DNA of 64,000 nt from Planobacterium oryzisoli (GTDB lineage: Bacteria > Bacteroidota > Bacteroidia > Flavobacteriales > Weeksellaceae). The notes beneath the pieces are model-generated. The model had not been told where the DNA came from and did not search any database. It saw only the letters and a program-made list of their open reading frames with translations. The translations under genes and the position numbers were made by a program. Positions 45,775 through 54,721 of the stretch are shown one piece after another. Positions within the stretch are counted from its first letter, which is position 1, and each line of letters opens with the position of its first letter. The DNA is taken from contig NZ_JADKYY010000014.1 in NCBI RefSeq assembly GCF_015354315.1, forward strand, positions 1 through 64,000, given 5' to 3'.

Positions 45775-48700
45775 TTAATTTAAATCTTCAAACTCTTTTT
45801 TCGAGCCGACAATCACATTTTGATACTCTCTGAGACCGGTACCGGCTGGAATTCTATGACCAACAATTACGTTCTCTTTCAAACCATTCAGCTCATCTAC
45901 CTTACCTGAAACCGCAGCTTCATTAAGTACTTTGGTTGTTTCCTGGAAGGAAGCGGCTGACATAAACGATTTGGTCTGAAGTGCAGCACGGGTAATACCT
46001 TGTAGCACTGGAGTAGCAGTAGCTGGAAGTGCTTCACGAACTTCAACAAGCTGAAGATCCTCTCTCTTTAGTTTGGAATTTTCATCTCTTAGTTCTCTTG
46101 CATTAATCATCTGACCTGGCTTGAATTCTTTCGAATCGCCGGCGTCAGTAACTACTTTCAGCCCAAATATTCGGTTGTTCTCCTCCAAGAAGTCATACTT
46201 ATGCTCTAAGGCACCTTCCAAGAATTGGGTATCTCCACCGTCCACAATCTCGACTTTAGTCATCATCTGACGAACAATTATCTCGAAATGTTTATCGTCA
46301 ATTTTCACCCCCTGAAGTCTATATACCTCTTGGATTTCATTCACTAAGTATTCCTGAACTGCAGTCGGTCCCTTGATTTTAAGAATATCGTCTGGCGTTA
46401 CTGATCCGTCAGACAATGGAGAGCCCGCACGAACAAAGTCATTTTCCTGAACTAAAATCTGATTGGAGAGCTTTACTAGGTAAATACGTCTTTCACCCGT
46501 TTTAGCCTCCACAATAAGTTCGCGATTACCTCTCTTAATCTTACCGTAGGATACCACACCGTCGATTTCAGTTACTACCGCAGGATTTGAAGGATTTCTG
46601 GCTTCAAATAATTCAGTCACCCTTGGAAGACCACCGGTGATGTCCCCTGCTTTTGCAGATTTTCTTGGAATCTTAATTAGAACTTTTCCAGCCTTAATCT
46701 TTTCTCCGTCATTTACCATTAAGTGAGCTCCTACCGGCAGGTTATATGCTTTGAGTTCCTCACCTTTAGTATCTACAACTCTAAGGGTAGGTACGGCCTT
46801 CTTATTTCTTGATTCTGTGATTACTTTTTCCTCAAATCCGGTTTGTTCGTCAATTTCTAACTGGAATGATACACCTTGAATAATATCTTCATATTCTACC
46901 TTACCAGCAGACTCTGCGATAATTACTGCATTATATGGATCCCATTTAGCAATCAGATCACCTTTCTTCACCTTATCTCCTGGTTTTACAGAAAGAGATG
47001 CACCGTACGGTAAATTAGCAATCATTAATGGTGTTCTAAGCTCATTGTCCGCTACTAATCTAAATTCTGTAGATCTAGAAACAACAACTTCATGTGTTTC
47101 ACCAAATTCATTCTCTGAAGTTACTGTACGAACTTCATCCATTTCAACAATACCGTCTCTTTTGGCAACTATGGAAGGATTTTCTGAGACGTTACCAGCA
47201 GTACCACCTTGGTGGAAAGTTCTTAAGGTTAGCTGGGTCCCAGGTTCCCCAATGGATTGCGCAGCAATAACTCCTACAGCCTCACCCATATGGATTGGTT
47301 TCCCCGTGGCCAGGTTACGTCCGTAACATTTTGCGCAAATTCCCCTTTTGGCTTCACACGTTAGAGGCGAGCGCACTTCAACGGCTTCTATACCTGCATC
47401 TTCGATCTCCTTAGCAACAGCTTCAACGATAATTTCATCTGCATTAACGATTAGATCGTCGGTCTCTGGGTGGTACACATCGTGTAAGGATACACGACCG
47501 AGAATTCTCTCCGAAATTCGTTCAACAATCTCATCGTTCTTTTTCAATGCTGCAACTTCAGTTCCTCTGAGCGTTCCACAATCTGTTTCCGTCACAATAA
47601 CGTCCTGGGCAACGTCCACAAGTCTACGTGTCAAATAACCTGCATCCGCAGTTTTAAGAGCCGTATCCGCAAGACCTTTACGAGCACCGTGGGTAGAAAT
47701 GAAGTACTCCAAAATGGAAAGTCCCTCCTTAAAGTTTGCTACAATTGGGTTTTCAATAATTTCAGCACCAGTAGATCCAGCTTTTTGAGGCTTAGCCATC
47801 AAACCTCTCATACCGGATAACTGTCTAATCTGTTCCTTAGAACCCCTTGCACCGGAATCAAGCATCATATAAACTGAATTAAACCCACCTTGATCGGTCT
47901 TCATTCGGCTCATGATCATCTCTGTTAAACCTGCATTGGTATTAGTCCAAACGTCAATAACCTGATTATAACGCTCAGTATCAGTAATTAGACCCATGTT
48001 GTAATTGGCTCTAATTTCATCAACACTTTCCACTGCTTGAGCTATCATGGTCTTTTTCTCCGCTGGGATTACGATGTCTCCAAGCGAGAAGGACAATCCT
48101 CCCTTGAATGCATTAGAGTATCCAAGGTCTTTCATATCATCAAGGAATTTCACTGTAGTAGGGAAATCCGTATCAGCTAGTATGCGACCAATAACGTTTC
48201 GAAGTGACTTCTTAGTAAGTAATTCATTAACAAAGCCAACTTTCTTAGGTACAATTTGGTTGAACAGTATTCTACCTACTGTAGTTTCAATGAGCTTAAC
48301 AACTAACTCACCATTTTCCTTAACTGGAAGGCGACAACGAACTTTGGCATTTAAGCTTACTTTACCTTCATTGTACGCAATTTCAGCTTCCTCAGGAGAA
48401 TAGAAAGCCAAACCTTCACCTTTTATTTTAACTTCGTCAGTTGAAGAAGCTTCTTTGGTCATAAAATACAGTCCCAATACCATGTCCTGCGAAGGAACAG
48501 TAATTGGTGATCCGTTTGCAGGGTTAAGAATATTTTGCGAACCAAGCATTAGCAACTGAGCTTCGAGAATGGCTTCTGGCCCCAATGGGAGGTGTACTGC
48601 CATCTGGTCACCGTCAAAGTCGGCATTAAATGCCGTGGTAACAAGTGGGTGAAGCTGGATTGCCTTACCTTCAATCATTTTTGGTTGGAAAGCCTGAATA

Positions 48701-50040
48701 CCTAATCTGTGAAGTGTAGGTGCCCGGTTTAACAAAACTGGGTGACCTTTCATTACATTCTCCAATATATCATATACCACTGGTTCCTTCCGGTCAATGA
48801 TACGTTTTGCAGACTTTACTGTTTTAACAATTCCTCTTTCAATTAACTTCCTTATTATAAATGGCTTGTATAATTCAGCTGCCATGTCCTTTGGAAGTCC
48901 ACATTCATGCAATTGAAGGTTGGGTCCCACTACAATTACGGAACGTGCGGAATAGTCAACCCTTTTACCAAGCAAGTTTTGACGGAAACGCCCTTGTTTC
49001 CCTTTCAGGGAATCCGATAAGGATTTCAATGGACGATTAGATTCGGACTTAACTGCAGAAGATTTACGCGTGTTATCGAATAATGAATCCACTGCTTCCT
49101 GCAGCATTCTTTTTTCGTTTCGTAAGATTACTTCTGGCGCTTTAATTTCCAGAAGCCTCTTCAGTCTATTATTACGAATAATTACCCTACGGTAAAGATC
49201 GTTCAAATCAGAAGTTGCAAAACGTCCTCCATCTAGTGGAACAAGTGGTCTAAGCTCAGGTGGAATCACAGGTAGAACACGCATAACCATCCATTCCGGC
49301 TTATTAATCATCCTGGTATTTGCACCTCGCAATGCTTCTACTACATTAAGACGTTTTAATGCTTCCGTTCTTCTCTGTTTAGAGCCTTCGTTGTGCGCTT
49401 TGTGACGTAAGTCAAAAGACAAAGCATCTAAGTCAATACGACGCAGCAATTCTTCAACAGCTTCCGCTCCCATCTTAGCAATAAACTTATTTGGGTCAGA
49501 ATCGTCAAGATACTGGTTTTCCACTGGTAAGGTCTCCATAACATCAAGGTATTCCTCTTCTGTTAGGAACTCCATTGTATCGAAATCTGAACCGTCGGCT
49601 TTCTTAGCAATTCCTTGTTGGATCACAACGTATCTCTCATAGTAGATAATCATGTCAAGCTTCTTGGAAGGTAATCCAAGTAAGTATCCAATCTTGTTCG
49701 GTAAAGAACGGAAATACCAGATATGAGCCACTGGCACTACAAGATTAATATGCCCGATTCTTTCTCTTCGTACTTTTTTCTCTGTAACTTCTACACCACA
49801 ACGGTCGCAGACAATACCTTTATATCGAATACGCTTGTACTTACCACAAGCACATTCGTAGTCTTTAATAGGCCCAAAGATTTTTTCACAAAATAACCCA
49901 TCACGCTCAGGCTTGTGCGTCCGGTAATTGATAGTCTCGGGCTTTAGGATTTCTCCTCTTGATTCCTGAAGTATAGACTCCGGGCTTGCAAGTCCGATAG
50001 TGATTTTATTAAATCTACTTGATTTATTTTTATTTGACAT
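45775..50040 (-). CDS. rpoC: RNA polymerase subunit beta'
   Basis: The 1421-residue largest RNA polymerase subunit. The active-site motif [12 protein letters not shown] is at about residue 470, with the zinc sites [19 protein letters not shown] near the N-terminus and [11 protein letters not shown] in the later part, and the trigger-loop region [16 protein letters not shown]. Length is as in Bacteroidota (E. coli 1407). It follows rpoB by 68 bases in the same transcript. Confidence 0.99.
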
Positions 50041-53100: not shown

Positions 53101-53945
53101 CGCTCTAATATAATCTCGTTTCTCTCTACCGATACTACCTCGCCAGTATCTTCGTCTACGAAATCTTCAAACCATGAGTTTAGCACTCTGGCAGCTAAAG
53201 TACGTCCTTCCACTTTTTTCAAAGCAGCTTTAGACACCTTCACCTCTTCAGCTAGATCAAAAATTTGAAGGATATCCTTATCCGACTCGTATCCAATTGC
53301 TCTTAATAGTGTCGTTAAAGGAAGTTTCTTTTTACGATCAATATATGCATACATTACATTATTGATATCCGTGGTAAACTCCATCCAAGACCCTTTGAAA
53401 GGAATAATTCTTGAGTAATAAAGTTTGGTTCCATTCGCGTGATAGGTCTGTCCAAAGAATACACCAGGAGATCGGTGCAACTGAGTAACTATTACACGTT
53501 CTGCTCCATTTATAATAAAGGATCCTGAAGGAGTCATGTAAGGTACAGGTCCCAAATAAACGTCTTGAATAACTGTCTGGAAATCTTCATGTTCCGGATC
53601 TGTACAATACAATTTTAGTCTGGCCTTTAAAGGCACAGAATATGTTAATCCTCGCTCAACACATTCATCGATGGAATAGCGTGGAGAATCAACCAAGTAG
53701 TCAATAAATTCCAATACAAACTGATTCCTAGAATCGGTAATTGGAAAGTTTTCCTGAAAAGTCTTATAAAGACCTTCATTCAATCTTGATTCAGGCAGCG
53801 TATCTAGTTGGAAAAATTCCTTAAACGATGCAATTTGCACGTCAAGAAAATCCGGAGACACCACTCTACCCTTGGACTCCGCAAAATTAATCCGCTCTGT
53901 GGCCTTAATCTCTACGGTGCTTTTTGTTGCTTTAGATTTACTCAT
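50109..53945 (-). CDS. rpoB: RNA polymerase subunit beta
   Basis: The 1278-residue beta subunit. Landmarks: the rifampicin-binding region [20 protein letters not shown] and [17 protein letters not shown], and the C-terminal [24 protein letters not shown]. The rifampicin region shows the wild-type pattern at the usual resistance positions. A terminator after rplL, a promoter at 54233-54263 and a leader of about 280 bases suggest that rpoBC is also transcribed separately from rplJL. Confidence 0.99.
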
Positions 53946-54232
53946 AAAGTAATAAAAAAAATAGGTTGGTTAAAAATATTTTGATTTTAAAAATATTAGA
54001 AAAAGAGTGAAATAAATAGAAGAAAGTGTTATCCGTTACAATAAGATTCTGTCTACTTAGGCGTCTTTTCCTACTGCAACACCGGTATATCTTTTCACGG
54101 AGTAGTGCAAAATATTCTTACAACGCTTAGAAGTTGTCCTGGAACAAAACAAAAATTGCCTCATTATCATAGATAATGACGCATTACAAGTCTATTTAAA
54201 AGTTTTGAACAACGGATAACTTCAAAGGACTG
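53946..54232 (-). promoter_or_regulatory. Long rpoB leader with potential RNA structure
   Basis: No credible gene lies here. On the minus strand the leader begins near 54226. GTTATCCGTT (54220-54211) is complementary to AACGGATAAC (54038-54029), a perfect 10-base closing helix about 170 bases apart. Inside are TCATTATC-ATA-GATAATGA (54161-54179) and ACAAC/GTTGT around 54120-54137. A short frame without a clear start ends with YTGVAVGKDA at about 54061. This looks like a structured regulatory leader; the type is not one I recognise. Confidence 0.5.
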
Positions 54233-54263
54233 CAAATGTACGACTTATAATTTAATTTCACAA
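54233..54263 (-). promoter_or_regulatory. rpoB promoter
   Basis: Minus strand TTG (54263-54261), a 20-base spacer, then TACATTTG (54240-54233), a perfect TAnnTTTG. Lies between the rplL terminator and rpoB. Confidence 0.7.
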
Positions 54264-54305
54264 GCCCCTTAGTTACTCCCCCCTAGGTGTGACTACAACA
54301 AAAAA

Positions 54306-54329
54306 ATCGCCAGGCGTTAGCCTAGCGAT
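54306..54329 (-). terminator. Intrinsic terminator after rplL
   Basis: ATCGC and AGGC (54306-54315) pair with GCCT and GCGAT (54320-54329) around loop GTTA with one mismatch; on the minus strand about seven T follow. It should stop or attenuate rplJL transcripts before rpoB. Confidence 0.8.
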
Positions 54330-54352
54330 TAATATAGAACGTGCGAAATGAA

Positions 54353-54721
54353 TTACTTCAATTCTACTTCAGCTCCAGCTTCTTCAAGTTGCTTCTTAAG
54401 TGCCTCAGCTTCGTCTTTGGATATTCCCTCCTTAATTGCAGCAGGAGCTCCATCAACCATATCTTTAGCTTCTTTAAGACCTGCACCTGTTAAATCTTTA
54501 ACTAATTTAACTACGGCTAGCTTAGAAGCACCTGCAGATTTAAGGATTACGTCGAATTCTGTTTTCTCTTCAGCAGCTTCTCCAGCGCCACCACCAGAAA
54601 CTACAACTGCCGCAGCAGCTGGCTCGATTCCGTACTCATCCTTAAGGATTGCAGCTAATTCATTTACGTCTTTTACTGTTAGGTTTACTAGCGTTTCAGC
54701 TAAGTTTTTTAAATCTGACAT
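54353..54721 (-). CDS. rplL: 50S ribosomal protein L7/L12
   Basis: A 122-residue stalk protein: N-terminal dimerisation helices ([23 protein letters not shown]), an Ala/Gly-rich hinge (about 36-50) and the factor-binding C-terminal domain ([38 protein letters not shown]). Recruits GTPase factors to the ribosome. Follows rplJ by 48 bases. Confidence 0.98.

What the first reader, a model, noticed from the sequence alone, without database searches (positions are those of the whole stretch)
53946..54263. Long structured leader of rpoB after an internal terminator
Between rplL and rpoB lie an intrinsic terminator, a near-consensus promoter and a leader of about 280 bases with a perfect 10-bp long-range helix (GTTATCCGTT/AACGGATAAC) enclosing further hairpins. 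In E. coli, rpoB follows rplL by partial read-through. A separate promoter with a folded leader would allow independent control of RNA polymerase, perhaps by autoregulation.
Basis: partly seen in the sequence, partly recalled or inferred. Interest (0 to 1): 0.6.

Follow-up and report, generated by a model that had tools for sequence, protein, structure and literature searches.

The report
Structured leader RNA of rpoB
In Chryseobacterium and its relatives the gene for RNA polymerase's beta subunit has its own promoter and a roughly 280-base folded RNA leader, preserved by compensating mutations and shaped like a transcription on/off switch; it matches no catalogued RNA family, and what it senses is unknown.

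Summary
Between rplL and rpoB the minus strand carries a terminator, a perfect Bacteroidota sigma-A promoter (TTG-N20-TACATTTG, predicted start 54228) and a 283-nt leader whose 5' end pairs with a segment about 190 nt downstream.

Comparative data turn this into a defined RNA element. A 48-nt core stands alone, 105-227 nt upstream of rpoB, in the Chryseobacterium-type Weeksellaceae. No other sampled Flavobacteriales family has it, and no Rfam family matches. The long-range helix (P0), a core hairpin with an invariant 12-nt loop segment (P2), a 5' hairpin (Pa) and a stem directly before a U-tract (P3) all show compensatory changes. P3 has 79 tree-mapped double changes, against 3-28 in shifted controls. 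P0 and P3 cannot both form in one nested fold: P0 is favoured in short transcripts, P3 once the U-tract is made. In two reduced relatives the terminator stem uses the core's own 3' strand.

Best reading: a dedicated transcription attenuator for rpoBC with a lineage-specific sensor hairpin. Termination, the sensed signal and autoregulation are inferred, not shown. Closest precedents are the E. coli rplL-rpoB attenuator and the Lacto-rpoB leader; it is a member of neither.

The parts
54305..54330 (-). Intrinsic terminator after rplL (11-pair stem, then TTTTTG)
   Evidence: separates the ribosomal-protein genes from rpoB
54233..54263 (-). Bacteroidota sigma-A promoter TTG-N20-TACATTTG; predicted RNA start about 54228
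   Evidence: TAnnTTTG conserved at a near-fixed distance from the core in relatives; consensus and -12 to -5 position from PMC9723704
53946..54228 (-). rpoB leader RNA, about 283 nt
   Evidence: no Rfam match
54209..54220 (-). P0 5' arm GTTATCCGTTGT near the RNA 5' end
   Evidence: pairs with 54028-54039; compensatory changes across genera
54161..54179 (-). Hairpin Pa (TCATTATC-TAT-GATAATGA), followed by a U-rich run
   Evidence: 67 distinct stems in relatives, mostly 8-9 bp, with compensatory differences
54108..54120 (-). P1 5' strand TAAGAATATTTTG (suggestive)
   Evidence: pairs with 53971-53983; conserved on both sides, mostly wobble changes only
54069..54116 (-). Conserved 48-nt core (model R1), containing hairpin P2
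   Evidence: R1 match, 75.2 bits; found upstream of rpoB in the relatives
54074..54110 (-). Hairpin P2: UUGCA(CU)AC-U-CCG [UGAAAAGAUAUAC] CGG-U-GU UGCAG
   Evidence: 99.4-99.5% of cells paired; C-G, U-A and G-C exchange at the x:x' pair; G-U wobbles fit the sense strand
54064..54073 (-). P3 5' strand TAGGAAAAGA
   Evidence: pairs with 53997-54006
54034..54046 (-). P3* 3' strand TCTTATTGTAACG, which can pair with 54069-54081 and excludes P0 and P2 (window's own clade only)
   Evidence: 11-13 bp in L001, L002, L003 and L029; not supported family-wide
54028..54039 (-). P0 3' arm GTAACGGATAAC
53989..54006 (-). P3 3' strand TCTTTTTCTA followed by ATATTTTT: terminator-like stem and U-tract
   Evidence: 79 tree-mapped double changes against 3-28 for slid controls
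53971..53983 (-). P1 3' strand CAAAATATTTTTA, about 26 nt before the rpoB start codon
50109..53945 (-). rpoB, the gene controlled; rpoC follows at 45775-50040

Best explanation
This is a lineage-specific cis-acting leader RNA that acts as a transcription attenuator for rpoBC. RNA polymerase starts at the leader's own sigma-A promoter, because the terminator after rplL uncouples rpoB from the ribosomal-protein genes. As the leader emerges, hairpins Pa and P2 fold, and the 5' end then pairs with the P0 3' arm. About 48 nt later (family median; 31 nt in the window) the 3' strand of P3 is made, directly followed by a U-tract; if P3 forms it should act as an intrinsic terminator just before rpoB. 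P0 and P3 cross each other in the sequence, so in a simple nested fold only one can form: P0 first (read-through), P3 if P0 is absent or displaced. The P2 hairpin with its invariant UGAAAAGAUAUA loop segment is most likely the binding site of the factor that biases the choice. Shown: promoter conservation, the P0, Pa, P2 and P3 pairings by covariation, the crossing topology and the energy ranking. Inferred: that P3 terminates, that P0 prevents it, that P2 is the sensor, and everything about the signal.
For: The core occurs once per genome, always upstream of rpoB: 164 of 168 loci have rpoB 105-227 nt downstream, and the other four are cut by the locus edge. P3: mean helix 8.25 against 7.27 for shuffled partners (maximum 7.57 in 200); on an RpoB tree 84.3% paired and 79 double changes against 44-53% and 3-28 for slid partners; the stem ends directly before the U-tract in most leaders. 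P0: helix weight 23.2 against 20.3 for shuffled partners (maximum 20.8), with variants such as GTTATCCGTTGT/GTAACGGATAAC, TTTGGTGCAA/TTGCACCAAA, TTTTGGGCTTATT/GATGAGCCCAAAA and TTTTGGCGTTA/TAACGCCAAAA. P2. Switch energetics in 106 leaders: up to the P0 3' arm, P0 gains a median 10.5 kcal/mol; at the U-tract the P3 fold is a median 8.2 kcal/mol better than the P0 fold. Two reduced relatives without the 5' half of the leader place the P2 3' strand inside the terminator stem: L018, ACCGGCGUUGCUGA...UCAGCAACGCCGGU-UUUUUUU (z = -5.79), and L017, GUUGCAAUU...AAUUGCAAC-GGAUUUUUU.
Against: No transcript data. P3 is A/U-rich and usually closes a long loop (roughly 60-120 nt), which is weak for an intrinsic terminator; some Kaistella leaders have only four U (L057, L117). 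P0 and P3 could coexist as a pseudoknot, giving no switch. P0 is not recognisable in several lineages (e.g. L007, L013, L056, L060, L094), so it cannot be essential to the mechanism everywhere. In most genomes P2 and P3 are compatible, so the L018/L017 logic (P2 against terminator) does not carry over directly. In the window itself P0 does not beat the alternative P3* in the short transcript (-44.1 against -46.9). The energies come from nested-fold models with enforced helices.
Confidence: 0.52

Rival explanations
1. The leader controls translation or mRNA stability rather than termination: P3, P1 and the A/U-rich segment just before the start codon form a structured platform that opens or closes the initiation region.
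For: The P1 3' strand lies about 26 nt before the ATG and is conserved with its 5' partner. [quoted passage not shown] In L057 and L117 the U-tract is short while the AUAUUUU/AAAAUAU pairing is kept.
Against: P1 has almost no two-sided changes and its sequence is low-complexity. P3 is placed directly before a U-run in nearly all leaders, and L018 and L017 carry plain terminators.
Confidence: 0.22
2. RNA polymerase itself, or an elongation factor, binds P2 and sets its own synthesis (autoregulation; a special case of the attenuator).
For: The element is found only at rpoB, once per genome; the P2 loop is near-invariant, as expected of a protein- or ligand-binding site.
Against: No direct evidence of any ligand; an r-protein, a metabolite or a Nus factor would leave the same pattern.
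Confidence: 0.2
3. P0 and P3 form together as one pseudoknotted, static fold that stabilises or processes the mRNA, without switching.
For: In some relatives the P0 3' arm sits in a small apical loop (AUAAC-AGCGCCAAA-GUUAU in L131), suited to loop-to-end pairing. A large 5' structure could protect the mRNA.
Against: Does not explain the U-tract directly after P3, or the L018/L017 terminators that overlap P2.
Confidence: 0.12
4. A leader peptide (GTGAAAAGATATACC... read as MKRYT...) regulates by ribosome position.
For: An open frame with a GTG start begins in the core.
Against: Third codon positions in AAA-AGA-TAT are invariant, while first positions vary (G/A/C at +15) and change the residue; the changes follow pairing, not codons.
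Confidence: 0.02
5. Chance structure in A/T-rich DNA.
For: The region is A/T-rich and the window's own fold is only modestly better than shuffles (z = -2.34).
Against: Conservation of the core across the clade and compensatory changes far above controls.
Confidence: 0.01

Closest known systems
Lacto-rpoB RNA motif (RF01709)
   Same: A lineage-specific conserved RNA structure associated with rpoB, rated probably cis-regulatory (PMC2864571)
   Different: Lactobacillales only; no match of this leader to RF01709 even at E up to 10, nor of ten relatives at the gathering score
E. coli rplL-rpoB attenuator
   Same: A control point between rplL and rpoB that uncouples RNA polymerase from ribosomal proteins (PMC4670729; Barry et al. 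1980, cited in PMC5371410)
   Different: The E. coli attenuator acts on read-through from rplL; here there is a dedicated promoter, a 283-nt covarying leader with a conserved core, and a second terminator-like stem
Short rplL-rpoB gaps of other Flavobacteriales
   Same: A hairpin with a T-run between rplL and rpoB
   Different: Gap mostly about 100-230 nt in the genomes read; none has the core, and no TAnnTTTG was found in those gaps
Riboswitch/attenuator leaders in general
   Same: Mutually exclusive early helix and terminator-like stem, and a conserved candidate receptor hairpin
   Different: No ligand known, and only one target gene

Membership tests
Lacto-rpoB motif (RF01709) | Match to the RF01709 covariance model | tested here: not met
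   Not among matches at E up to 10 for 53800-54450; no family at gathering score in ten relatives
Lacto-rpoB motif (RF01709) | Located upstream of rpoB | tested here: met
   164 of 168 loci, the other four truncated
E. coli-type rplL-rpoB attenuator | Partial terminator between rplL and rpoB | tested here: inconclusive
   A terminator-like hairpin with a T-run is present at 54330-54305; whether it is partial cannot be tested here
E. coli-type rplL-rpoB attenuator | rpoB expressed mainly by read-through from upstream promoters, without its own promoter and leader | tested here: not met
   A conserved dedicated promoter and leader are present
Intrinsic-terminator attenuator | Stem directly followed by a U-tract upstream of the coding region | tested here: met
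   P3 plus UAUUUUU; covariation; strong terminator-like hairpin in L018
Intrinsic-terminator attenuator | A mutually exclusive antiterminator pairing | tested here: inconclusive
   P0 and P3 cross and rank differently at different transcript lengths, but a pseudoknot is not excluded
Intrinsic-terminator attenuator | Regulated termination in cells | not testable with these tools
   No transcript data available
Riboswitch | Conserved aptamer that binds a metabolite | not testable with these tools
   P2 is a conserved candidate receptor; no ligand known
Leader-peptide attenuator | Conserved short reading frame with synonymous substitution pattern | tested here: not met
   column counts: third positions fixed, first position +15 variable
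L10 leader (RF00557) | Match to the RF00557 model upstream of rplJ | tested here: not met
   18 bits against a gathering score of 44, overlapping the terminator after rplL, not the leader

The most novel reading that the evidence does not exclude
The P2 hairpin is a receptor for RNA polymerase or its elongation complex: free polymerase binding the nascent leader sets the P0/P3 choice, so the enzyme senses its own abundance through an RNA made only by the Chryseobacterium lineage.
Probability: 0.2. Interest if true: 0.82.

Novelty: new variant of a known kind. Interest (0 to 1): 0.57.

Why it matters
How bacteria set the amount of RNA polymerase is still incompletely understood even in E. coli (PMC4670729). 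This leader is a compact, testable control element for rpoBC in a phylum with unusual promoters and little Shine-Dalgarno use, in a group that includes clinical and veterinary genera (Elizabethkingia, Riemerella). It is single-copy, has a near-invariant hairpin to use as bait, and natural reduced versions (L017, L018) that suggest the minimal switch. It would also be a new RNA family, absent from Rfam 15.

Tried and rejected
Leader peptide: rejected from the substitution pattern. Core pairing with the P0 3' arm (P3*) as a general feature: own partners 14.02 against 13.83 for shuffled partners, inside the control range, so only the window's own clade has it. Core on the antisense strand: G-U wobbles in P2 are valid only for the sense strand. 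Core elsewhere in genomes, suggesting a regulon: one strong match per genome; none in viral contigs. Core in the family genera lacking it, in other families or across the phylum: only weak chance-level matches or none. A first extraction with strands mixed was discarded and redone. The first version of P2, with a U-U mismatch (used in model R1), was replaced by the two-base-bulge version, which explains the invariance of UUGCA/UGCA. A resemblance of GUGAAAAG..ACC to a 23S rRNA segment was recalled but not tested. The Weinberg 2017 catalogue was not held.

Full report
OBSERVATION. The window is from a Weeksellaceae-type member of the Flavobacteriales; named relatives with the same element are Chryseobacterium, Kaistella, Elizabethkingia, Riemerella, Bergeyella, Moheibacter and others. 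All coordinates are on the minus strand. rplL ends at 54353 and rpoB begins at 53945. The 407-nt gap holds an intrinsic terminator (54330-54305) and a promoter TTG-N20-TACATTTG (54263-54233). TAnnTTTG is the sigma-A -7 box of flavobacteria, at -12 to -5 (PMC9723704), which puts the RNA start at about 54228 and makes the leader 283 nt. The leader folds better than shuffles (z = -2.34).

A CONSERVED ELEMENT AT rpoB. In 296 genomes of the family, 258 had at least one match with up to two mismatches, the strong ones listed having none. All loci were pooled (168 with the core, some duplicated between collections): 164 have rpoB 105-227 nt downstream, and the other four are cut by the locus edge. 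The rplL-rpoB distance meanwhile varies from 307 to 6357 nt, so the leader travels with rpoB, not with rplL. A covariance model of the core (R1) found 60 of 296 genomes in the order, all in the window's family, and 7 of 296 in the phylum, all in the family. In other families, and in family genera lacking the core, the rplL-rpoB gap is mostly about 100-230 nt with one hairpin. No Rfam family matches, and no viral contig holds the core.

CAVEAT ON SAMPLING. Many loci were collected with an exact pattern, so invariance inside GTGAAAAGATAT and GTTGC is partly selected. The two-mismatch family search found essentially only exact versions at rpoB, which argues that the invariance is real.

PROMOTER. 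TAnnTTTG lies 130-169 nt upstream of the core in nearly all of 141 leaders: 138 occurrences in those four 10-nt bins, and single digits in every other bin. Elements of this form downstream of the core are sporadic (15 of 137 leaders, most inside the U-tract), so there is no conserved start near the ATG.

STRUCTURE. P0: the RNA 5' end pairs with an arm about 190 nt later in the window. In relatives the two strands change together, for example GTTATCCGTTGT/GTAACGGATAAC, TGTTTGAAGCC/GGCTTCAAACA, TTTTGGCGC/GCGCCAAAA, TTTGGTGCAA/TTGCACCAAA, TTTTGGGCTTATT/GATGAGCCCAAAA, ATTTTGGCACA/TGTGCCAAAAT. Mean helix weight is 23.2, against 20.3 (maximum 20.8) for shuffled partners and 15.4 for shuffled letters. 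A second P0 count that maximised placement was less discriminating, 88.3% paired against 83.5-85.5%, because most 5' arms share TTTGGCGC. Pa: a local hairpin with 67 distinct stems. P2: the core hairpin; 99.4% of cells paired, 6 cells with two-sided changes against 1.2 in shuffles, and 6 tree-mapped double changes against 0-1 for slid partners. P3: the strand directly after P2 pairs with a strand that ends right before a U-tract; 79 tree-mapped double changes against 3-28 for slid partners, and mean helix 8.25 against 7.27. In the window P3 is UAGGAAAAGA/UCUUUUUCUA-AUAUUUUU. P1: AAAAUAUUUUG with CAAAAUAUUUU near the start codon is conserved but weakly tested, because the sequence is simple and changes are mostly wobbles.

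WHY A SWITCH. P0 and P3 cross, so they exclude each other in any nested fold. In 106 leaders the P0 fold gains a median 10.5 kcal/mol as soon as the P0 3' arm is out, while at the U-tract the P3 fold is a median 8.2 kcal/mol better. The median spacer is 48 nt. That order is typical of attenuators, in which an early helix delays a more stable terminator. Two reduced leaders show the logic plainly. L018 and L017 have the promoter only 53 and 45 nt before the core, lack the 5' half, and use the 3' strand of P2 itself as the terminator's 5' strand; for L018 the stretch folds at -30.7 kcal/mol (z = -5.79). There, forming P2 must block termination. In the window's own clade a further hairpin, P3*, competes with both P0 and P2.

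MECHANISM, GRADED. Shown by sequence comparison: own promoter, the P0/Pa/P2/P3 pairings, and a constant link to rpoB. Modelled: the energy switch. Inferred: P3 terminates, P0 or P2 prevents it, and a factor binding P2 tunes the outcome. Guess: that factor is RNA polymerase. The main rival is translational control through P1/P3; next is a static pseudoknot.

COMPARISON WITH WHAT IS KNOWN. E. coli has an attenuator between rplL and rpoB that uncouples polymerase from ribosomal proteins (PMC4670729). Lactobacillales have the Lacto-rpoB motif, rated probably cis-regulatory in the original catalogue (PMC2864571). This leader works in the same place and probably to the same end, but it is a member of neither. 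It has its own promoter, a different conserved core, no match to RF01709, and a separate lineage. In the limited full-text library no description of it was found; subscription journals are mostly not held, so prior description cannot be ruled out.

VERDICT. A real, undescribed (as far as could be searched) structured leader RNA, most likely a transcription attenuator for rpoBC in the Chryseobacterium lineage.

Noticed in passing
L207, L210, L214, L217 (upstream of rpoB): In other Flavobacteriales families several rpoB frames seem to start at a TTG in a conserved CCATTG context rather than at ATG.
   Followed up: no
L201-L220, rplL-rpoB gap: A conserved hairpin GGTTTAGRCCT...AGGYCTAAACC followed by TTTTG occupies the rplL-rpoB gap across many Flavobacteriales families, at the place of the E. 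coli attenuator.
   Followed up: partly
54179-54141: Hairpin Pa is followed by AATTTTTGTTTTG; in L056 and L111 it looks like a complete intrinsic terminator, so there may be a second, promoter-proximal attenuation point.
   Followed up: partly
L045, L016 and other relatives, between the core and the P0 3' arm: Purine-rich tandem blocks (AAGAGCCAAGAGCC) that can pair with the pyrimidine-rich stretch before P3, lengthening the P3 stem.
   Followed up: no
rplL-rpoB gap in Chryseobacterium-type genomes: Insertions of up to about 6 kb separate rplL from rpoB while the leader stays next to rpoB.
   Followed up: partly
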